Shown here: positions 15,414 to 28,706 of the stretch, one piece after another
Position numbering within the stretch: position 1 is the first letter of the stretch
Layout of the letters: the number at the start of each line of letters is the position of its first letter
NCBI GenBank assembly: GCA_007135605.1
Contig: SLIN01000062.1
Span: 1-33,602 of the forward strand
Reading direction: 5' to 3'
DNA from: Spirochaetales bacterium
Lineage (GTDB): Bacteria; Spirochaetota; Spirochaetia; DSM-27196; SKKC01
DNA length: 33,602 nucleotides
Made by a program: the position numbers and the translations under genes
Notes under the pieces: generated by a model
What the model was told of the DNA's origin: nothing
What the model saw: only the letters and a program-made list of their open reading frames with translations
Databases searched by the model: none

Positions 15414-16370
15414 ATGAGCGATCGCACCAAGGGTGCTGCAGGCGGCGGGGCCCAACAGTCAGCCGGCGGTCCGGGCGCTGATGCGTCACCGCCGGCACAA
15501 GGTCCGGACACCGATACTCCGAAGTCGCCGGCCGGGCCGGACACCGATACTTCACAGTCGACACCGATTCCACCGATCCTGACCGGACAAAGGGCGCTGG
15601 TCACCGGTGGAAGCGCCGGTATCGGCGCGGCATGCGTCAGAGCCCTTGCGGAGGCGGGCGCCGACGTTGCAATTAACTACCGTTCGGGAGCGGATTCGGC
15701 GGAGTCTCTCGCCGAGTACGCCCGGACACTCGGCCGTACGGCGATTACCGTGCAGGCCGACGTATCGGAGGAAGAGCAGGTCGAAGCGATGGTCTCCACG
15801 GTGATCGATCAGCTCGGAACGATCGACATACTCGTAAACAACGCGGGCCTACAGGCCGATGCACCGTTCGAGGAAATGACGATCGAGCAGTGGAACCGGG
15901 TAATCAACGTGAACTTGACCGGGCCGTTTCTCTGTTCTCGCGCGGTGGTACGCGAGTTCAAACGTCGCGGAGTGGTACCCGAGGTCTCCTCGGCCGCGGG
16001 AAAAATCATTAACATGAGCTCGGTCCACGATGCGATTCCGTGGGCCGGCCACGTGAATTACGCCGCCGGCAAAGGGGGCGTGCAGATGTTTACCAGGAGC
16101 ATCGCTCAGGAGCTGGCCCCGCACAGGATACGCGTATTGGCGCTATCCCCCGGCGCGATTCGGACCAATATCAACCGGCCCGCCTGGGAAAACGAAGAAG
16201 CGTACAACAACCTCATGAAACTGATACCGGTCAATCGCATCGGCGAACCGTCGGATGTCGGCCGGGTGCTTGCCTGGCTTGCATCAGACTTCTGCGACTA
16301 CGTAACCGGCACGACCATGTACGTCGACGGCGGGATGATGCTCTACCCCGCCTTTGCCGAAGGAGGCTGA
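15414..16370 (+). CDS. Short-chain dehydrogenase, glucose 1-dehydrogenase-like
   Basis: This 318-residue NAD(P)-dependent oxidoreductase has the classical SDR core from about residue 58 to the end. It contains the cofactor motif TGGSAGIG, the NNAG motif, a catalytic Ser in INMSS and the YxxxK motif (Y-A-A-G-K), then SPGAIRT and the C-terminal TGTTMYVDGG. The pattern resembles glucose 1-dehydrogenases and general sugar or polyol SDRs, but the substrate is not certain. The first 55 residues are a low-complexity Gly/Pro/Ala linker containing an 11-residue repeat (PDTDT core) caused by a 33-bp DNA duplication (15504-15518 and 15537-15551). GGGAGG precedes ATG 15414; a TTG at 15363 inside the operator is rejected. 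The next gene starts eight bases after the stop, so the pair forms an operon. Confidence 0.9.
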   Translation: MSDRTKGAAGGGAQQSAGGPGADASPPAQGPDTDTPKSPAGPDTDTSQSTPIPPILTGQRALVTGGSAGIGAACVRALAEAGADVAINYRSGADSAESLAEYARTLGRTAITVQADVSEEEQVEAMVSTVIDQLGTIDILVNNAGLQADAPFEEMTIEQWNRVINVNLTGPFLCSRAVVREFKRRGVVPEVSSAAGKIINMSSVHDAIPWAGHVNYAAGKGGVQMFTRSIAQELAPHRIRVLALSPGAIRTNINRPAWENEEAYNNLMKLIPVNRIGEPSDVGRVLAWLASDFCDYVTGTTMYVDGGMMLYPAFAEGG

Positions 16371-16377
16371 ACCAGGT

Positions 16378-18282
16378 ATGTCCGGCAAAGAAGCTTCATA
16401 TCGACCGATTGCCGACTACGGAATAATCGGCAATATGCGCACGATCGCGCTGGTAGGAATAGACGGTGCGATCGACTGGATGTGTTACCCCTACTTCGAC
16501 TCTCCGAGTTTATTCGCCGGAATTCTCGACGGGGAAAACGGGGGCTCGTTCGAAATATATCCGGTCGAGTCGCCGAACGCAACGAAGAAGCAGCACTACT
16601 GGCCGGAGACGAACGTACTGGTGACCCGTTTCCTCTGCGAGCATGGTGTCGTCGAAGTCACCGATTTCATGCCCGTATCACGCCGCTTCGATGAACGAAC
16701 CCCCGCTGCGCTCGAAGCCGGCGCGGAGCCGAATCGCCTGCTCCGAAGCATCCGCGGAGTACGCGGATCGCTCCGGATTCGTGTCTCCTGCCGGCCGGCG
16801 TTCGATTTCGCCCGAGTCGGTCACACGCTGGAGATAAACGGGGCATCCGCGCGGTTTACGCCGGAGTCGAACGAGAACGACCTGTACGCCATCGAGCTCC
16901 ACGCCGGCGTTGCGTTGGAGTCGGATGCCCGCGGGGCGGCCGTCGCCGAGTTCGACCTGCACGAGGATGAGACCGTCACCTTTGTGCTCGGACGCCCCGG
17001 CGAAATCGAAGAGCTGCGTGCCGACGGCGATTCGTCCGGCGATAGTGCACGTAAGTTCGAAGCGCTGTTTTCCGAGACCGTTTCCTACTGGCGCTCGTGG
17101 CTCGCGCAATGTCGGTATCAGGGCCGGTGGCGCGAGATGGTGCATCGCTCGGCGCTCGTTCTCAAGCTGCTGACCTTCGCTCCGACCGGAGCGATTGTCG
17201 CCGCGCCGACGGCGGCACTTCCGGAGGCGATCGGCGGCGAGCGAAACTGGGATTACCGATATACCTGGATACGCGACGCCGCGTTTACCGTTTATGGTCT
17301 CATGAGAATCGGATTCTCACGGGAGGCCACAAGGTTCATGCGCTGGATCGAAGACCGTACGAACGAACCGAATGAAGACGGATCGCTGCAGATCATGTAC
17401 GCACTGGACGGACGCCACAAACTGACCGAGGAGACCCTCGATCATCTCGACGGCTATCGTGGTTCCCGGCCGGTACGTGTCGGGAACGCCGCCTACGATC
17501 AGCTGCAGCTCGACATATACGGCGAGCTGCTCGACTCGGTCTATCTCTACAACAAGCACGGTGAGCCGATCTCCTACGACTTCTGGGTTCGCCTTCGAAG
17601 CCTCGTGAACTATGTGTGCGATCATTGAAAAGAGCCCGACGAAGGCATCTGGGAAGTTCGCGGCGGACGCCGGCACTTCACCTACTCCAAGCTGATGTGC
17701 TGGGTGGCTGTAGATCGCGGAATACGCCTGGCCGATAAGCGGTCGTTTCCAGCCGACCGTAGCCGTTGGATCGCCGTACGGGACGAGATCTACGAGGAGA
17801 TAATGGAGCGCGGTTTCAGCACCGAGCGCGGGGCGTTCGTCCAGGCGTACGGAGAGGATGCGCTTGACGCCTCCAACCTCATGATGCCACTCGTGTTCTT
17901 CGTATCGCCGTCCGATCGACGCATGATCGCAACACTCGAGCAGACGCTGAAGACACCGGAAAACGGGGGACTCGTTTCGAACAGCCTGGTATACCGGTAC
18001 GACGTGTCGAAAACCGACGACGGACTCTCCGGCGAGGAAGGCACGTTCAACATCTGTAGCTTTTGGCTCGTTGAAGCGCTCACGCGCGCAGGCAGGATGC
18101 ACCCGGAGAAGCTGGAGCAGGCGCGGCTGATTTTTGAAAAGATGATCGGGTACGCGAATCACCTCGGCCTCTACGCCGAGGAGACGGGGCCGACCGGAGA
18201 TGCGCTCGGCAACTACCCTCAGGCGTTTACCCATCTATCGCTGATCAGCGCCGCTTACAATCTGGACCGTACGCTCGGTTGA
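16378..18282 (+). pseudogene. GH15 glycosidase (trehalase/glucoamylase-like) with in-frame TGA
   Basis: The frame encodes a bacterial GH15 enzyme of normal length (634 codons), which would release glucose from trehalose or alpha-glucans. The N-terminal beta-sandwich domain runs to about residue 240, and the (alpha/alpha)6 barrel starts with GERNWDYRYTWIRDA. The frame is broken once by TGA at 17626-17628 (codon 417), between CDH and [12 protein letters not shown]. Relatives usually have Trp there, so a single TGG to TGA change explains it. The catalytic acid region GIWE and the base region GEEGTFNIC both lie after the stop, so the 416-residue product should be dead without readthrough. Downstream sequence is otherwise intact, arguing for a recent mutation, sequencing error or readthrough. 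The start is ATG 16378 with GGAGG upstream. It follows the SDR gene in one operon. Confidence 0.85.
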
Positions 18283-22379: not shown

Positions 22380-23234
22380 ATGGCACTGAACGACCAGCAA
22401 ATCTACCGCTACTCCCGGCACATTCTGTTGAAGGGCGTGGGTGGCACCGGCCAGGAGAAATTGCTCAACTCACGGGTGCTTATCGTCGGCGCCGGTGGCT
22501 TGGGCTCGCCGGTTTCGCTCTATCTCGCTGCCGCCGGGGTCGGAACCATCGGAATTGTTGACGCCGACGAGGTCGATTTGAGTAATTTGCAGCGACAGAT
22601 CGCACATGGGACCTCCGACATCGGCCGCTCCAAGGTCGACTCGGCTGCCGAGCAGATTGCGGAGCTGAATCCGGATGCTACCGTCGAGAAGCACCCGTAT
22701 CGACTCAGTGCGGAGAACGCTCGCGATCTCGTTGCACAGTACGATTTCATTGTCGAGGGAACCGATAATTTCCCGACGAAGTTTCTCGTAAACGATGCGT
22801 GCGTGTTCGCCTCCAAGCCGGCGTCGATCGGCGGAATACTCCGCTTCGAAGGTTCGACCATGACCATTTTGCCGGGTGAAGCATGCTACCGCTGCGTCTT
22901 CCGACAACCGCCACCGAAAGACGCGGTGCCGACCTGCGCCCAGGCCGGGGTTCTCGGTGCGGTGGCCGGTATGCTCGGAACGGTGCAGGCAACCGAAGCG
23001 CTCAAGTACCTGACCGGAGTGGGAACGCTTCTTTCCAATCGGGTACTCAGCTTTGACGCACTGAGTATGGAGTGGCGGACGGTGCGGGTGAAGCGCGACC
23101 ACAAATGCCCGGTATGCGGAGACAATCCGACGATCACCGAGCTTGTTGAGTATGAACAGCCTGCGTGCGCGATCCGACCCGGTGAAGGGATTTCACAGAC
23201 CCGGGACGAGCATCAATTGAGTGGAGTGCGATGA
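22380..23234 (+). CDS. E1-like sulfur-carrier adenylyltransferase (MoeB/ThiF/HcyF type)
   Basis: This 284-residue enzyme is predicted to use ATP to adenylate the C-terminal glycine of a ThiS/MoaD-like carrier, ready for thiocarboxylate formation. The nucleotide motif is VGAGGLGSP (36-44), and the DxxNLQRQ segment (66-73) and GTDN (127-130) contact ATP and Mg. The catalytic-region Cys is in PTCAQAG (Cys186), and two CxxC pairs (169/172 and 243/246) bind structural zinc. No rhodanese domain is fused, but a separate one lies in the operon. No thiamine or molybdopterin genes are nearby; the carrier, MetY and JAMM genes point to the HcyF role of the thiocarboxylate homocysteine pathway. GGAAGG precedes ATG 22380. 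The stop overlaps the next start by four bases (ATGA). Confidence 0.88.
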   Translation: MALNDQQIYRYSRHILLKGVGGTGQEKLLNSRVLIVGAGGLGSPVSLYLAAAGVGTIGIVDADEVDLSNLQRQIAHGTSDIGRSKVDSAAEQIAELNPDATVEKHPYRLSAENARDLVAQYDFIVEGTDNFPTKFLVNDACVFASKPASIGGILRFEGSTMTILPGEACYRCVFRQPPPKDAVPTCAQAGVLGAVAGMLGTVQATEALKYLTGVGTLLSNRVLSFDALSMEWRTVRVKRDHKCPVCGDNPTITELVEYEQPACAIRPGEGISQTRDEHQLSGVR

Positions 23235-24361
23235 ACCGAACGACCGTAAACCGAATCATACCGATCGTAATGGCCGCGGCCGCGATAACACTCACCGCAA
23301 CTATCGTCTTGGGGATCATCGACGGTACGCTCACCGGTGGATCGCCCATAACGTCCGGCCAATCGGTCTTTGCTGCGGGCGGCTCAACGCTGCAGGTCGA
23401 CGAGGATCTCGAGGGCGGGATTCTCGTCATCGCCGATCCGGCGACGGAGATCCGCGTTCTCGATCCGGCGGACGCCTCCGAGCGGGGACGAATCGAGCTC
23501 GGACGGGAACCGGCCACGATCACTCCGACACCCGGCGGGGTTTCGGTTTTTGTGACCTTTCCGGATACCGAGGAGATAGAAGTTTACAGTACGACGGAGT
23601 TCGAACACGAGACGACGATCGCGCCGGAAGGTGGCGACGGTCGGACTCCGGAAGATCTCACCTTCTCGGAAAACGGCGATACCCTTTTCGTCACCTGGCG
23701 AGACAGCGATGCGGTGAGCGTGTTCTCGCACTCTATGCTGGGTCTCTCGTTTCGATACGAGTTCGCAACGCCGGATGCCCACGGACCGCTCTATCGCAAC
23801 CGGCGCGCAACGCGACTGTATCGCGGAAGCGGTTCAGGCATCGAAATCTATTTCGCGCAGAACGGTGAGCACATCGATACGATAACGCTCCCCGGCGAGC
23901 AGGCGGATAATGAAGCATGGGTGTTCAACGCCCGGCATACCCATCTCTGGGGTACCGACGCCTCGGGCAATCCGATCGTCGTGGATGAGGCTGCGTCCAG
24001 CGCGCGCGAAATCGACATTTCGGCCTCACCGGAGATCGCACCGGTGATTCCGGCCGACACCGAGCACGCACTTTACGTCGATGCGGCGCAGACGGGGGTA
24101 TTCGCGTTTGACGCGCGCAGCGGAAATCGACTCGCAGACGTGACGTTCTCCGAAAAGGTGCTGGATGAGCTGGGCGGACGAATCGCCCGCATCGTTGATA
24201 CGGGCGCCGGTCCGGTGTGGGCCATCGGCGTCTCGGGGAAAATCGCAGCGGTAGATCCGGCAACGCTCTCGATCGCAGATGTACACGATGCCGGAGCAAG
24301 GGAAACGGTTATGGCGGTCTCTTCGATCGTCCAACAGGACGGAAACTTCGCATGTTTCTAA
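23231..24361 (+). CDS. Membrane-anchored beta-propeller protein, unknown
   Basis: This 376-residue protein has one N-terminal hydrophobic segment (about 9-31) and an extracytoplasmic domain of repeated four-strand units. Repeats such as GILVIADPATEIRVLDP, GVSVFVTFPDTEEIEVYS, GDTLFVTWRDSDAVSVFS and HALYVDAAQTGVFAFDAR suggest a YncE-like or lactonase-like seven-bladed propeller. No catalytic residues are recognisable. It is translationally coupled to the E1-like gene (ATGA overlap) and lies 27 bp before the thiosulfate transporter gene, so it is embedded in the sulfur operon. By context it could bind a sulfur compound or a partner such as the anchored rhodanese outside the cytoplasm; this is inference only. 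No relative with a known role comes to mind. Confidence 0.65.
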   Translation: MNRTTVNRIIPIVMAAAAITLTATIVLGIIDGTLTGGSPITSGQSVFAAGGSTLQVDEDLEGGILVIADPATEIRVLDPADASERGRIELGREPATITPTPGGVSVFVTFPDTEEIEVYSTTEFEHETTIAPEGGDGRTPEDLTFSENGDTLFVTWRDSDAVSVFSHSMLGLSFRYEFATPDAHGPLYRNRRATRLYRGSGSGIEIYFAQNGEHIDTITLPGEQADNEAWVFNARHTHLWGTDASGNPIVVDEAASSAREIDISASPEIAPVIPADTEHALYVDAAQTGVFAFDARSGNRLADVTFSEKVLDELGGRIARIVDTGAGPVWAIGVSGKIAAVDPATLSIADVHDAGARETVMAVSSIVQQDGNFACF

Positions 24362-24388
24362 CGTGACGGCTGCAGAGGATATTGAATC

Positions 24389-25438
24389 ATGATAGTCGCA
24401 GGTGGCATCTCTCTCGGATTACTACTCGGATATGCGCTTCAGCGCGGTGGCTACTGTATGAACACCGCCTTCCGCAGTTTCTATCTGGAGAAGGACCGCA
24501 GTTTGGTACGCGCGTGGGCGGTCGTACTCTTGATAAACGTGATCGGCGTGGCACTGCTCACCGAGCTCGGAGTACTGCTACCGGAGGTCGCTCCATTCTT
24601 CTGGCCGGCGGCGATCGTCGGTGGGTTCGTGTTCGGGATCGGTATGGTGCTTGCCGGCGGCTGTGCCAGCGGCACCTATTACCGGTGCGGGCGCGGAATG
24701 CTCGGATCGATCGCCGCCCTCGTCGGGTTCGTCATCGGTACCGCCCTCATCGACGGCGGAGCGCTCGTCGAGATCCAGCAGCAGCTACGCGGTACCACGA
24801 TCGATGTGAGTGGGCGGGAAGCAACGCTCTTCAACCTCCTCGGGCTCGAATCAACGGCCGCGCGATGGCTTCTGATCGCAGGGATCTCGATACCGGCGAT
24901 CGTGTGGCTCTCGCGCGCCCCGAAGCAACGCTTCCTTATCGGATGGGGTTGGCGAAAGACCGGTGCTGCCGTGGGCGTCCTTGCGCTTGCGACATGGGTG
25001 ATTTCGGCAATGCAGGGACGCGATTTCGGACTGTCGTTCACGCAGCCGACGGTGGCCTTGACGCGGTTTCTCGTCACCGGCGATTCCGCCGGCATTAGCG
25101 TCGCATCGTTTATTGTCATCGGCGTGCCAATCGGAGCGTTTCTGGCCGCGAAGGCTGCCGGAGAGGCGATTCTTCGCATGCCGGACCCGGGCCGTTTTGT
25201 TCGCCAATTCGGCGGCGGAGCAACAATGGGCCTCGGCGCCTCGATCGCCGGTGGCTGCAATATCGGACACAGCATTACCGGGGTATCTACGCTCGGCATC
25301 ACGGCGATCACCAGCACAGCGTTCATTATGCTCGGGTGCTGGGTAATGACAGGAATCGTGTATCGATCTGAACGCCGAAAGATGGAAGCCGAAATCGCCG
25401 CCATGCGGTCCGCGGTTCCACAAGGAGAAACGTCATGA
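24389..25438 (+). CDS. YeeE/YedE-family thiosulfate (sulfur) transporter, TsuA-like
   Basis: This 349-residue integral membrane protein has about ten membrane segments and the two-fold internal repeat of the YeeE/YedE family. The conserved cysteines that relay thiosulfate through the structurally known Spirochaeta thermophila YeeE are present at matching places: Cys23 in RGGYCMNTAFR, Cys92 in AGGCASGTYYRCGRG and Cys290 in AGGCNIGHS. An extra Cys100 accompanies the second motif. Predicted function is uptake of thiosulfate (or a related sulfane-sulfur anion) into the cytoplasm. AGAGGA precedes ATG 24389. The neighbours are a propeller protein before it and an anchored rhodanese and a TusA-like carrier after it, all consistent with sulfur import and relay. 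Confidence 0.9.
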   Translation: MIVAGGISLGLLLGYALQRGGYCMNTAFRSFYLEKDRSLVRAWAVVLLINVIGVALLTELGVLLPEVAPFFWPAAIVGGFVFGIGMVLAGGCASGTYYRCGRGMLGSIAALVGFVIGTALIDGGALVEIQQQLRGTTIDVSGREATLFNLLGLESTAARWLLIAGISIPAIVWLSRAPKQRFLIGWGWRKTGAAVGVLALATWVISAMQGRDFGLSFTQPTVALTRFLVTGDSAGISVASFIVIGVPIGAFLAAKAAGEAILRMPDPGRFVRQFGGGATMGLGASIAGGCNIGHSITGVSTLGITAITSTAFIMLGCWVMTGIVYRSERRKMEAEIAAMRSAVPQGETS

Positions 25439-25506
25439 GACGGGGACGACAACACGGACCGGCGTGCGGGGCGTGTCCGCACAGGAGACGCTCATCGATG
25501 CGGTGA
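25435..25506 (+). CDS. Possible 23-residue Cys-rich peptide
   Basis: A short frame starts at ATG 25435, overlapping the transporter stop (ATGA), with a good AGGAG seven bases upstream. It ends at TGA 25504-25506. The peptide is basic and has a central ACGACPH motif with a CxxC pair. The Shine-Dalgarno and coupling argue for translation; the lack of any known relative argues for caution. It could be a leader or coupling peptide for the rhodanese, whose start follows 54 bp later, or only a remnant of a longer gene. Confidence 0.3.
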   Translation: MRRGRQHGPACGACPHRRRSSMR

Positions 25507-25560
25507 TATTACGAGCGCGGCATGTCGAACAATCATATGCAACACAGCATGGAGGAAGGA

Positions 25561-26487
25561 ATGGCAAGATTCAAAAGGAATCCGACAGTGATCGCCGCGG
25601 CGATCGTTCTTGTAGTGGGCGTCGCCGGAGTCGGAGTGGCATACGCGGCAGGCGCATTCGAGCAGCAAATCGTTCGGACCGCGCCGGAGGATATCCTGGT
25701 GAGCCCGGAATGGGTCCGGGACAACGCCGGCGACATCACAATTCTCGATGTCGGCAGAGATGCCGACGCATTCGCGGAGGGACACGTTCCGGGCGCCGCA
25801 TACGTCGATCGAGTCGTCGTGTGGGACCGGGTAAACGATATCGATGGGATGCTCCCCGAACCGGAAGTAGTCGCAGCCGACCTCGCGGAATCGGGCGTAT
25901 CCAACGATCGCCCGGTGGTCGTCTACGACGGCGGCAATGGTCTTTGGGCAAGCCGCTTTTTCTGGGCGCTCGAATATCTCGGACACGAACAAGTGCATGT
26001 ACTGGACGGCGGAATAACGGCCTGGAACGAGTCGGGATTCAGTCCAACCAATGAGATCGATGTGCCGGATCGTGGCAACTTCGTAGCAGACGTACGCCCG
26101 CAGCTGATTGCCGACAAGGAGTTCATTCTCGAACAACACGGCAATGAGCATTTCGCAGTTCTCGATGCACGCTCGGAAGCGGAGTACAGCGGGGAAGATG
26201 TCCGGGCCGCCCGCGGCGGTCATATCCCCGGTTCGGTGAACATCGACTGGGTGAATAACCTCAGCGAGTCGAACCGCTTTCGCCCATTCGAGGAACTCGC
26301 AGAACTCTATGGTGATGTACTCGAAGGTCATGACGGTCCGGCCGTAACGCTTTGCCAGACCGGTGTGCGCGGCGCCCACACCTATGTCGTGCTTCGCGTA
26401 CTCGGCGAAGAAGACGTACGCGTCTACGACGGCTCCTGGGCCGAATGGGGTAACGACGAAGATGCACCCGTCAGCGGAGGGGCATGA
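25561..26487 (+). CDS. Exported/anchored two-domain rhodanese sulfurtransferase
   Basis: This 308-residue thiosulfate or mercaptopyruvate sulfurtransferase has two rhodanese domains. The N-terminal hydrophobic segment (about 8-30, ending AYAAGAFE) is a signal peptide or anchor, so the enzyme probably acts outside the inner membrane. The N-terminal domain (about 45-160) is inactive, with Asp in place of Cys (VVYDGGNG). The C-terminal domain (about 185-300) has the active loop CQTGVRG with Cys265, a loop of the thiosulfate-sulfurtransferase type. It can form a persulfide from thiosulfate. AGGAAGGA precedes ATG 25561; longer starts at 25522 and 25549 are less well supported. It lies between the thiosulfate transporter and the TusA-like carrier. 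An exported location would be odd for feeding a cytoplasmic carrier directly, so the anchor topology matters. Confidence 0.88.
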   Translation: MARFKRNPTVIAAAIVLVVGVAGVGVAYAAGAFEQQIVRTAPEDILVSPEWVRDNAGDITILDVGRDADAFAEGHVPGAAYVDRVVVWDRVNDIDGMLPEPEVVAADLAESGVSNDRPVVVYDGGNGLWASRFFWALEYLGHEQVHVLDGGITAWNESGFSPTNEIDVPDRGNFVADVRPQLIADKEFILEQHGNEHFAVLDARSEAEYSGEDVRAARGGHIPGSVNIDWVNNLSESNRFRPFEELAELYGDVLEGHDGPAVTLCQTGVRGAHTYVVLRVLGEEDVRVYDGSWAEWGNDEDAPVSGGA

Positions 26488-26493
26488 TGACAA

Positions 26494-26523
26494 CAGCCTT
26501 CGGCGCGAATGCGCCGGAGGCTG
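26494..26523 (+). other. Stable intercistronic hairpin in the sulfur operon
   Basis: Thirteen-base arms (26494-26506 and 26511-26523, beginning CAGCC and ending GGCTG) pair at every position with one G-U wobble around a GAAT loop. The structure starts 7 bp after the rhodanese stop and ends 32 bp before the TusA-like start. No T-run follows. It could stabilise the upstream message, act as a partial attenuator, or mark an RNA processing site. An ATG at 26484 that would extend the tusA frame through it is rejected because GGGGAGG supports ATG 26556. Confidence 0.6.
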
Positions 26524-26555
26524 TAAACAATAGAGAAAATTGGGGAGGAATACGT

Positions 26556-26804
26556 ATGAGTGACCAGAAAGAGCAGAAAGCAGACAGGACGGTAGATCTT
26601 CTGAGCGAAGTGTGCCCGTACACATTTGTTAAGAGCAAGCTCGAGCTCGAACAGATGGAGACCGGGCAGATCCTGCAGATACATCTCGGAAACAGCGAAT
26701 CCGCGTCAAACGTTCCGCGGTCGGTCGATCTCGAAGGGCACGAGGTTCTGAGTGTCGATCAAACGGAGCCGAGTCACTGGGTGGTAACGGTTCGCCGCGC
26801 ATAA
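26556..26804 (+). CDS. TusA-like sulfur carrier protein
   Basis: This 82-residue cytoplasmic protein is of the TusA/SirA/YedF family. The conserved sulfur-binding motif is EVCPYTFVKSK with Cys20, followed by the helix LELEQMETGQ and a strand pair (QILQIHLGN and HWVVTVRR). TusA proteins accept sulfane sulfur as a Cys persulfide from rhodaneses or cysteine desulfurases and pass it to partner proteins. The Tyr-Thr after CP replaces the usual Gly-Pro or Tyr-Pro of well-known members, as in other carriers found near YeeE transporters. GGGGAGG lies seven bases before ATG 26556. It lies between the rhodanese and the ThiS/MoaD-like carrier, so relay of sulfur to the adenylated carrier is a reasonable inference. 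Confidence 0.85.
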   Translation: MSDQKEQKADRTVDLLSEVCPYTFVKSKLELEQMETGQILQIHLGNSESASNVPRSVDLEGHEVLSVDQTEPSHWVVTVRRA

Positions 26805-26835: not shown

Positions 26836-27057
26836 ATGAATCTCAAGATAAACGGTACAGACACGACAATCGATGCTCCGAGCTTGACGGTCGTTGAGCT
26901 GTTGAAACAGCAGAACGTCGATATGCCGGACATGGTTTCCGTACAGCTGAACGGCGAAATACTCGAGCGCGATGCCTTCGAGAATACAACGGTAAAGGAT
27001 TCCGACGAGGTGGAGTTTCTCTACTTCATGGGGGGTGGTGCGATAGATGCAGGGTGA
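26836..27057 (+). CDS. ThiS/MoaD-like sulfur carrier with masked Gly-Gly (HcyS-like)
   Basis: This 73-residue ubiquitin-fold protein resembles ThiS and MoaD: MNLKINGTD, a TVVELLKQQNV helix, a VSVQLNGEIL strand and the terminal DEVEFLYFMGGG. In ThiS the chain ends at the glycines. Here five more residues, AIDAG, follow Gly66-Gly67-Gly68, so the carrier must be cut before it can be adenylated. Wolinella HcyS has the same logic with one extra Ala, removed by a JAMM protease (HcyD), and a JAMM gene lies two genes downstream here. After thiocarboxylation the carrier would give its sulfur to an O-acyl-homoserine. GGAGGA precedes ATG 26836. Its last 11 bases overlap the start of metY, so the tail is encoded within the overlap region. 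Confidence 0.85.
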   Translation: MNLKINGTDTTIDAPSLTVVELLKQQNVDMPDMVSVQLNGEILERDAFENTTVKDSDEVEFLYFMGGGAIDAG

Positions 27058-28327
27058 TGGACATGAGTGTCGCGGCTTCAACACGCGTGCGGCACACATT
27101 CTGGGCAGCGACAAAACGCCGTACGGGGCTACGAATGCGCCACTCTACCTTTCCAGCGGTTTCTCGGCGGAGAGCGCCGATGAGCTTGCCGAACGATTCG
27201 CCGGAAGGCGCCCCGGTTACATCTATTCTCGCATCTCTAATCCAGGCGTGAGCACGTTCGAACAGCAGTTCGCTTCGCTCGAAGAGGGCCGTGGTGCGAT
27301 CGCATGCTCCTCCGGTATGGCCGCGATATCCGCGGTGATTCTGACACTCTGTCGCACCGGAGATCGAGTCGTCGCCGGCAGCAGCCTGTTCGGTGGTACA
27401 CTTATGCTCTTCGACTTCCTGCTCCAGCGAATGGGGGTGGATGTCGAGTACATCGATCCGAGTGAAACGCAGAACTTCGCCCGGGCGGCCGACGGTGCAG
27501 CGCTCTGTTTCGTGGAATCGATCGGCAACCCGAAACTCGATGTCGTAGACGTAGGAGCGCTCGCCGAGATCTGCTCAACCGCCGGTACACCGCTGGTCGT
27601 CGACAGCACGCTTGCAACCCCCTATGCTGCACCGGGCCGGCGGTTGGGAGCTCACCTAACGGTACACTCAACAACGAAGTTCGCCGCCGGGACCGGGAAC
27701 TCCGTTGGAGGGCTTGTCGTCGATACCGGACTCTTCGACTGGAAGAAGTGTCGCGACCCGGAGGTATCTGAGTCAGCCGGCCGTTTCGGCAGCGAACTCG
27801 GCTTTCTCGCGCTGGCGCGCCGGCAAGTAACCCGCAATACCGGGAACGGAATGGCGCCGTTCGATGCGTTCCTGCAATGCACGGGCCTCCAGACACTCGG
27901 GCTGCGAATGGAACGCCACTGCGCCAACGCACAAGCGCTCGCCCGATTCCTCGAACGTCACGAGCTCGTGGAATCGGTGAATTATCCGGGCCTGCAATCG
28001 AGCCCTTGGCACGACATAGCAACCAAACAGTTCGGCGAGGCGTGCGGCGCACTGCTCACGCTGAGACTCGGGAGTAGCACGCGAGCGCTCCGTTTCATCG
28101 ACGCGCTCGATTTGGCAATAAACACTGCAAACCTCGGCGATGTACGCACCATGGTCATTCATCCGGCGTCGACGATCTATCGCGACCTGTCCGAGCAATC
28201 GCGCCGGTCGGCCGGGGTCACCGATGATCTCGTGCGTGTCTCGGTCGGAATCGAACACATCGACGACCTTATTCACGACTTCGATTGCGCATTGAAGAAC
28301 GGAGAAACGGATGATACGACTACCTAA
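27047..28327 (+). CDS. metY: MetY-like PLP enzyme (O-acetylhomoserine sulfhydrylase family)
   Basis: This 426-residue Cys/Met-metabolism PLP enzyme has the Schiff-base Lys in HSTTKFAAGTGN (Lys211), the Asp that binds the pyridine nitrogen in VVDSTLATP (Asp186), and the phosphate or substrate loop YSRISNP (60-66) with SSGMAAI. It ends with RVSVGIEHIDDLIHDF, typical of the family. The expected reaction is replacement of the acyl group of O-acetyl- or O-succinylhomoserine by sulfur, here from the carrier thiocarboxylate, giving a carrier-homocysteine adduct. A cysteine-forming or cystathionine-forming activity cannot be excluded from sequence. ATG 27047 overlaps the carrier gene by 11 bp, with a G-rich ribosome site in that gene. 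The JAMM gene overlaps its 3' end by 17 bp. Confidence 0.88.
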   Translation: MQGDGHECRGFNTRAAHILGSDKTPYGATNAPLYLSSGFSAESADELAERFAGRRPGYIYSRISNPGVSTFEQQFASLEEGRGAIACSSGMAAISAVILTLCRTGDRVVAGSSLFGGTLMLFDFLLQRMGVDVEYIDPSETQNFARAADGAALCFVESIGNPKLDVVDVGALAEICSTAGTPLVVDSTLATPYAAPGRRLGAHLTVHSTTKFAAGTGNSVGGLVVDTGLFDWKKCRDPEVSESAGRFGSELGFLALARRQVTRNTGNGMAPFDAFLQCTGLQTLGLRMERHCANAQALARFLERHELVESVNYPGLQSSPWHDIATKQFGEACGALLTLRLGSSTRALRFIDALDLAINTANLGDVRTMVIHPASTIYRDLSEQSRRSAGVTDDLVRVSVGIEHIDDLIHDFDCALKNGETDDTTT

Positions 28328-28706
28328 AGGAATAGTGGACGAGATCGCGGCGCAGGCAAACGCGGAAGCGCCGAATGAAGCGTGTGGATACCTCGCCGGG
28401 ACTGACGGCACTGTTCGGCAACGCTATCCGATGACGAACGTAGATGCCAGCCCGGATCACTTCGCCCTCGACCCGAAAGAGCAATTTGCGGTGCTCAAGC
28501 GAGCGCGCGAAGCCGGGCTCACGCTGCTTGCCGTCTATCACAGCCACCCGGAGACGCCGGCTCGAATGTCGGATGAAGATATCCGACTCGCGAACGACCC
28601 AAATACCATCTACCTGATTCACTCGCTACTCGACGGCGGGACGAAAGGTTTCACCGTTGATCGTGACAAAACTGTCATGGAGGTCCCCGTCGAGGTGTTC
28701 GAGTAG
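28311..28706 (+). CDS. JAMM/MPN+ zinc metalloprotease (HcyD/Mec+-like)
   Basis: This 131-residue bacterial JAMM protease has all its metal and catalytic residues: Glu23 in NEACGYLAG, His77 and His79 in YHSHPETP, then Ser87 and Asp90 in MSDED, which fits the HxH-x7-Sx2D motif. Close functional relatives are Mec+ of mycobacteria, which frees cysteine from CysO, and HcyD of Wolinella, which trims HcyS and frees homocysteine. The same double role is predicted here: removing the five-residue tail of the carrier, then hydrolysing the carrier-homocysteine bond. GGAG precedes ATG 28311, which lies inside the end of metY, so the two are translationally coupled. It is the last gene of the operon and converges on lpdA. 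Confidence 0.9.
   Translation: MIRLPKGIVDEIAAQANAEAPNEACGYLAGTDGTVRQRYPMTNVDASPDHFALDPKEQFAVLKRAREAGLTLLAVYHSHPETPARMSDEDIRLANDPNTIYLIHSLLDGGTKGFTVDRDKTVMEVPVEVFE

What the first reader, a model, noticed from the sequence alone, without database searches (positions are those of the whole stretch)
26836..27057. Sulfur carrier with a five-residue mask (AIDAG) after Gly-Gly-Gly
ThiS and MoaD carriers end at the glycines. This one has AIDAG beyond Gly68, longer than the single Ala of HcyS. The tail is encoded where the gene overlaps the start of metY, so its length could be set partly by the overlap. The downstream JAMM protease would unmask the carrier, making activation a controlled step.
Basis: partly seen in the sequence, partly recalled or inferred. 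Interest (0 to 1): 0.6.

Follow-up and report, generated by a model that had tools for sequence, protein, structure and literature searches.

The report
Capped sulfur-carrier gene for methionine synthesis
A small bacterial sulfur-carrier protein carries five extra residues that a neighbouring protease very probably trims off before use; such caps are a normal, highly variable feature of this known methionine-pathway family, and they appear on a second carrier (the thiamine one) almost only in genomes that encode such a protease.

Summary
Window 26836-27057 encodes a 73-residue ThiS-like protein ending FLYFMGGG-AIDAG, and its last 11 bases overlap the start of a MetY-like gene. It lies in an intact operon: E1, propeller, thiosulfate transporter, rhodanese, TusA, carrier, MetY, JAMM. 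This is a new member of a known kind, the HcyS/HcyD (protein-thiocarboxylate methionine) system. "Capped" carriers needing a JAMM are already described. The five-residue tail is not exceptional: 105 of 111 distinct relatives from many phyla carry 1-26 residues after GGG (81 different tails), and 23 of 111 are 5 or longer. The overlap does not create the tail. Non-overlapping relatives are still capped (25/28), and a same-genus relative has an exact 12-codon insertion between the glycines and the overlap, although overlaps often favour short tails. "Controlled activation" is unsupported: the JAMM is presumably needed anyway to release homocysteine, and tailless orthologues keep it. The broader result is that caps on ThiS-type carriers (mostly thiamine ThiS) track a JAMM in the genome: 35 of 67 JAMM-positive against 1 of 171 JAMM-negative genomes in three clades. 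One JAMM therefore probably decaps more than one carrier. Cleavage itself was not tested.

The parts
26836..27057 (+). HcyS-type sulfur carrier (ThiS family), 73 aa
   Evidence: Pfam ThiS 7e-11; NCBIfam thiS 1e-15; 2k5p 4.6e-21
27031..27039 (+). codons of Gly66-Gly68 (GGGGGTGGT), predicted mature C-terminus; also a G-rich Shine-Dalgarno-like stretch 7 nt before the metY ATG
   Evidence: sequence; GGG invariant in the relatives aligned; downstream start 1-12 nt after the Gly codons in 54 of 72 relatives
27040..27054 (+). five-residue C-terminal cap AIDAG
   Evidence: hypervariable tail at this place in 105 of 111 relatives
27047..28327 (+). MetY-like O-acetylhomoserine sulfhydrylase family (PLP Lys in STTKF, residue 211); start overlaps the carrier by 11 nt
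   Evidence: Pfam PF01053 9e-108; below NCBIfam cut-off of the general OAH sulfhydrylase model (395 vs 495 bits)
28311..28706 (+). JAMM metalloprotease, HcyD-type; E23, H77, H79, S87, D90 invariant in 98 aligned JAMMs; overlaps metY by 17 nt
   Evidence: Prok-JAB 8e-24; 2kks 1e-26; only JAMM in this genome assembly
22380..23234 (+). E1-like MoeB/ThiF adenylyltransferase without rhodanese domain, two CxxC motifs
   Evidence: Pfam ThiF 4e-82
23231..24361 (+). beta-propeller-like protein with N-terminal signal/anchor, function unknown; co-occurs with TsuA and rhodanese in related operons
   Evidence: weak TIGR03866
24389..25438 (+). TsuA-like thiosulfate transporter
   Evidence: PF04143 6e-74; NCBIfam TsuA 2e-60, below its cut-off
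25522..26487 (+). two-domain rhodanese with N-terminal membrane anchor; Cys motif CQTGVR
   Evidence: PF00581
26556..26804 (+). TusA/SirA-family sulfurtransferase (Cys20 in VCPY)
   Evidence: PF01206 3e-17

Best explanation
The gene encodes a capped HcyS-type sulfur carrier of the protein-thiocarboxylate route to homocysteine. Proposed cycle: the co-encoded JAMM cuts after the third glycine and removes AIDAG. The E1 adenylates the exposed Gly. TusA/rhodanese sulfur, probably from thiosulfate imported by the TsuA-like transporter, makes the thiocarboxylate. The MetY-like enzyme transfers it onto an activated homoserine. The same JAMM then cuts the carrier-homocysteine amide, releasing homocysteine and regenerating the carrier. 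Because the JAMM cuts after the glycines whatever follows, the residues after GGG are free to vary, and any short cap is tolerated, perhaps even favoured. Shown here: the anatomy, the family, the hypervariable tails, and the association of tails with JAMM. Inferred: cleavage, cut site, substrate and cycle, by analogy with HcyS/HcyD, CysO/Mec+, QbsE/QbsD and PtmS2/PtmS1.
For: Complete co-oriented gene set with overlaps or short gaps. Same gene set (carrier, E1, JAMM, usually TusA and MetY) around FLYFMGGG carriers from many phyla: JAMM in 96 of 111 loci, and most of the rest lie near contig ends. Genome-level checks found an HcyD-type JAMM for most of those, so 101 of 105 capped but 3 of 6 tailless relatives have one (Fisher p 0.003). 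Capped 105/111 in this family against 8/70 in ThiS-type carriers from the same searches (Fisher 3e-32). In three clades, caps on ThiS-type carriers follow the presence of a JAMM in the genome: 13/19 vs 0/113, 17/26 vs 0/12, 5/22 vs 1/46 (CMH p 2e-18; about 12 of 13 clade-collapsed gains in JAMM genomes). JAMM catalytic residues intact and invariant. Literature: capped carriers need a JAMM, and deleting ptmS1 abolishes the thiocarboxylate products (PMC6006322); Mec+ releases cysteine from CysO-cysteine (PMC3227635); ThiS-JAB-E1-SirA-OAH sulfhydrylase neighbourhoods described in 2006 (PMC1779556). No convincing ThiG in this genome, so a thiamine role is unlikely.
Against: No biochemistry. A few capped carriers sit in assemblies without a detected JAMM (G041, G130, G459, G462), though these are draft genomes with contig breaks. 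The HcyS/HcyD paper itself was not available, so the single-Ala statement rests on my knowledge and on the GGGA carriers of Campylobacterales.
Confidence: 0.85

Rival explanations
1. The tail is a selected zymogen-style mask: it holds the carrier inactive until regulated cleavage, so cap removal is a control point for sulfur flow.
For: Tailless members are rarer than a geometric tail-length distribution predicts (6 seen, about 24-32 expected), so having at least one extra residue may be favoured.
Against: Length and sequence are hypervariable even within a genus. The protease is co-encoded in the same overlapping operon, which leaves no obvious separate regulation. Tailless orthologues with the JAMM exist.
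Confidence: 0.2
2. The tail is a by-product of gene overlap: the downstream start uses the Gly codons as ribosome-binding site and the stop falls where the overlap puts it.
For: Downstream start 1-12 nt after the Gly codons in 54 of 72 relatives; exact 4-nt overlaps in 24 of 72; tail length correlates weakly with start position among overlapping genes (rho 0.41).
Against: 25 of 28 relatives whose genes do not overlap are still capped; ThiS genes with equally close downstream starts stop right after GGG. In the window's genus a 36-bp insertion lengthened the tail without touching the metY start.
Confidence: 0.1
3. The extended carrier is not cleaved and works through another route (for example conjugation or binding via the tail); the JAMM only releases homocysteine.
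For: Tailless orthologues keep the JAMM, so the JAMM has at least one other job.
Against: No tail sequence conservation beyond close relatives (81 distinct tails among 105); invariant GGG; caps on ThiS-type carriers track JAMM.
Confidence: 0.04

Closest known systems
HcyS-HcyD-MetY system of Wolinella succinogenes (Krishnamoorthy and Begley 2011; paper not held, content from my knowledge)
   Same: Carrier, E1, JAMM and MetY in one neighbourhood; residue(s) beyond the terminal glycines removed by the JAMM. Campylobacterales relatives end GGGA.
   Different: Five-residue cap instead of one Ala; metY between carrier and JAMM; operon includes a TsuA-like transporter, an anchored rhodanese and a propeller protein.
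PtmS1 with PtmS2/PtmS3 in Streptomyces platensis, and QbsD/QbsE (PMC6006322)
   Same: Carriers capped after GG by 1-2 residues, with a JAMM required for function.
   Different: Serve thiocarboxylate natural products; caps MV, C (QbsE: CF, from memory); gene set otherwise different.
CysO-Mec+-CysM of Mycobacterium tuberculosis (PMC3227635)
   Same: JAMM hydrolyses a carrier-amino acid adduct to release the product.
   Different: Makes cysteine via CysM rather than homocysteine via MetY; CysO is not known to me to be capped.
2006 neighbourhood class 4e of Iyer, Burroughs and Aravind (PMC1779556)
   Same: ThiS/MoaD-like protein, JAB, E1 without rhodanese, SirA, O-acetylhomoserine sulfhydrylase.
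   Different: Listed neighbourhoods have sulfate/sulfite uptake and reduction genes; this one has a thiosulfate-type transporter and a rhodanese.

Membership tests
ThiS/MoaD beta-grasp sulfur carriers | ThiS-family sequence with C-terminal GG | tested here: met
   Pfam, NCBIfam and 2k5p matches; GGG followed by a cap
HcyS-type methionine carrier system | Operon with E1, JAMM and MetY | tested here: met
   shared with relatives
HcyS-type methionine carrier system | Residue(s) after the glycines | tested here: met
   AIDAG; 105 of 111 relatives capped
HcyS-type methionine carrier system | JAMM removes the cap; carrier thiocarboxylate donates sulfur to homocysteine synthesis | not testable with these tools
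   needs protein biochemistry
JAMM/MPN+ metalloproteases (HcyD/Mec+ type) | Glu, HxH, Ser, Asp zinc/catalytic set | tested here: met
   E23, H77, H79, S87, D90 invariant in 98 sequences
Thiamine ThiS | Partner ThiG in neighbourhood or genome; C-terminus at GG | tested here: not met
   only a weak partial ThiG hit in a 89% complete assembly; capped; neighbours are MetY and JAMM

The most novel reading that the evidence does not exclude
A JAMM acts as a general decapping enzyme for sulfur carriers in the cell: once a genome has it, both the methionine carrier and the thiamine ThiS may acquire freely drifting C-terminal caps, so thiamine synthesis becomes dependent on a protease of the methionine pathway. 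The cap is licensed by the protease rather than designed as a regulatory mask.
Probability: 0.55. Interest if true: 0.5.

Novelty: new member of a known kind. Interest (0 to 1): 0.33.

Why it matters
The window itself adds one more member to a known pathway. The comparison gives a usable rule: residues after GG in a bacterial ThiS-like protein predict a JAMM in the genome, and thiamine ThiS in such genomes may need that JAMM. It would help annotation (capped carriers are not misassembled or dead genes) and give a simple genetic test of protease-dependent thiamine synthesis.

Tried and rejected
Thiamine role for this carrier: rejected, since there is no convincing ThiG and no second ThiS-like gene in the assembly. 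Overlap as the cause of the tail: rejected by non-overlapping capped relatives and by the 36-bp insertion in the same genus. Tail as a fixed recognition peptide: rejected, 81 distinct tails among 105. Structured RNA in the region: none at Rfam gathering scores. Original HcyS/HcyD, QbsE/QbsD and 2-thiosugar papers: not held. I did not run structure prediction, because sequence matches already settle both folds. The Cys enrichment of tails (19 of 410 residues vs 6 of 7506 in the core) has no explanation.

Full report
Observation. Window 26836-27057 (+) encodes a 73-residue ThiS-family protein ending FLYFMGGG-AIDAG. The metY-like gene begins at 27047, directly after an in-frame TAG, so it overlaps the carrier by 11 nt. 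The metY gene overlaps a JAMM gene (28311-28706) by 17 nt. Upstream on the same strand are an E1-like enzyme, a propeller-like protein, a TsuA-like thiosulfate transporter, an anchored two-domain rhodanese and a TusA. The genome is a Spirochaete draft assembly (near relatives are named). It has one ThiS-like gene, one JAMM and no convincing ThiG.

Family. Relatives with the FLYFMGGG end were collected from close genomes, a phylum sample and a scan of named genomes. They come from Spirochaetes, Clostridia, Negativicutes, Deltaproteobacteria, Bacteroidota, Planctomycetota, Omnitrophota, Helicobacteraceae and others. After removing duplicates, 105 of 111 have extra residues after GGG: 1-26 long, median 2, 81 different sequences. 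AIDAG is therefore typical; 23 of 111 are as long or longer. In the window's genus, G002 has the same AIDAG, with only synonymous differences in the tail codons. G001 (L032) has SSCSSSECSGVSALHA, made by an exact 36-bp in-frame insertion after the third Gly codon, with the metY start preserved.

Neighbours. A JAMM lies in 96 of the 111 loci. Most of the rest are cut by contig ends, and whole-genome searches found HcyD-type JAMMs for most of them: 101 of 105 capped but 3 of 6 tailless carriers are in JAMM genomes. Tailless carriers L043, L132 and L041 keep the JAMM. This fits the second role known for Mec+, which frees the amino acid from the carrier (PMC3227635). It also means the protease is not there only to unmask.

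Control carriers. ThiS-type carriers found in the same searches normally stop at the glycines (62 of 70). The exceptions prompted a test: does a JAMM elsewhere in the genome predict a cap on ThiS? Campylobacterales: 13 of 19 JAMM genomes have a capped ThiS against 0 of 113 without JAMM. Selenomonadales: 17 of 26 against 0 of 12. Spirochaete-phylum sample: 5 of 22 against 1 of 46. Pooled Cochran-Mantel-Haenszel p is 2e-18. Genomes are related, so I also collapsed shared tails by clade by hand: about 12 of 13 gains lie in JAMM genomes, which make up 28% of the sample (p 2e-6). Many of these ThiS genes sit next to thiG, so they are thiamine carriers; in Campylobacterales most lack a nearby thiG and are called ThiS-type by sequence only. 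For Campylobacterales without JAMM, most tail calls rest on the stop position printed; those read in sequence agreed.

Overlap. Among 72 relatives with an unambiguous downstream start, 54 starts lie 1-12 nt after the Gly codons and 24 show the 4-nt overlap of the ATGA kind. The G-rich Gly codons may therefore serve as ribosome-binding site for the next gene. Yet 25 of 28 non-overlapping relatives are capped, and ThiS genes with equally close downstream starts are not. Overlap influences length; it does not explain the cap.

Mechanism. The best reading is the known protein-thiocarboxylate route to homocysteine. The JAMM decaps, the E1 activates, TusA/rhodanese sulfur forms the thiocarboxylate, MetY transfers it, and the JAMM releases homocysteine. 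Genetic support for capped carriers needing a JAMM exists in Streptomyces platensis, where deleting the JAMM gene ptmS1 abolishes the thiocarboxylate products (PMC6006322). The operon class was described in 2006 (PMC1779556). Cleavage in this organism is inferred. The deficit of zero-length tails (6 seen, 24-32 expected from a geometric fit) hints that having some cap is favoured, but relatedness was not corrected and I do not lean on it.

Verdict. A real but ordinary feature of a known kind. The part worth following is the JAMM dependence of caps on ThiS-type carriers.

Noticed in passing
L136, L077, L288-L304, L367-L383: ThiS-type carriers (many next to thiG) with caps such as A, R, C, SK, AF, LSL or CGCRKDG, almost only in genomes that also encode a JAMM.
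   Followed up: yes
family-wide tails: Cysteine is strongly enriched in the tails (19 of 410 residues) compared with the carrier core (6 of 7506). No explanation.
   Followed up: no
window 23231-26804: Propeller-like protein, TsuA-like thiosulfate transporter, anchored rhodanese and TusA form a block shared with several related Spirochaete operons, suggesting thiosulfate as the sulfur source for this carrier system.
   Followed up: partly
window 16354-18282: A GH15 glycosyl hydrolase is split over two ORFs (16354-17628 and 17695-18282) that match successive parts of one Pfam model, so it is probably frameshifted or mis-assembled.
   Followed up: no
L164, L384 and genomes G649, G650: Open frames of 329-383 aa beginning with a ThiS-type carrier; L164 is a ThiS-ThiG fusion with about 264 residues after GGG. 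Whether a JAMM separates such fusions was not examined; G661, G649 and G650 have one.
   Followed up: no
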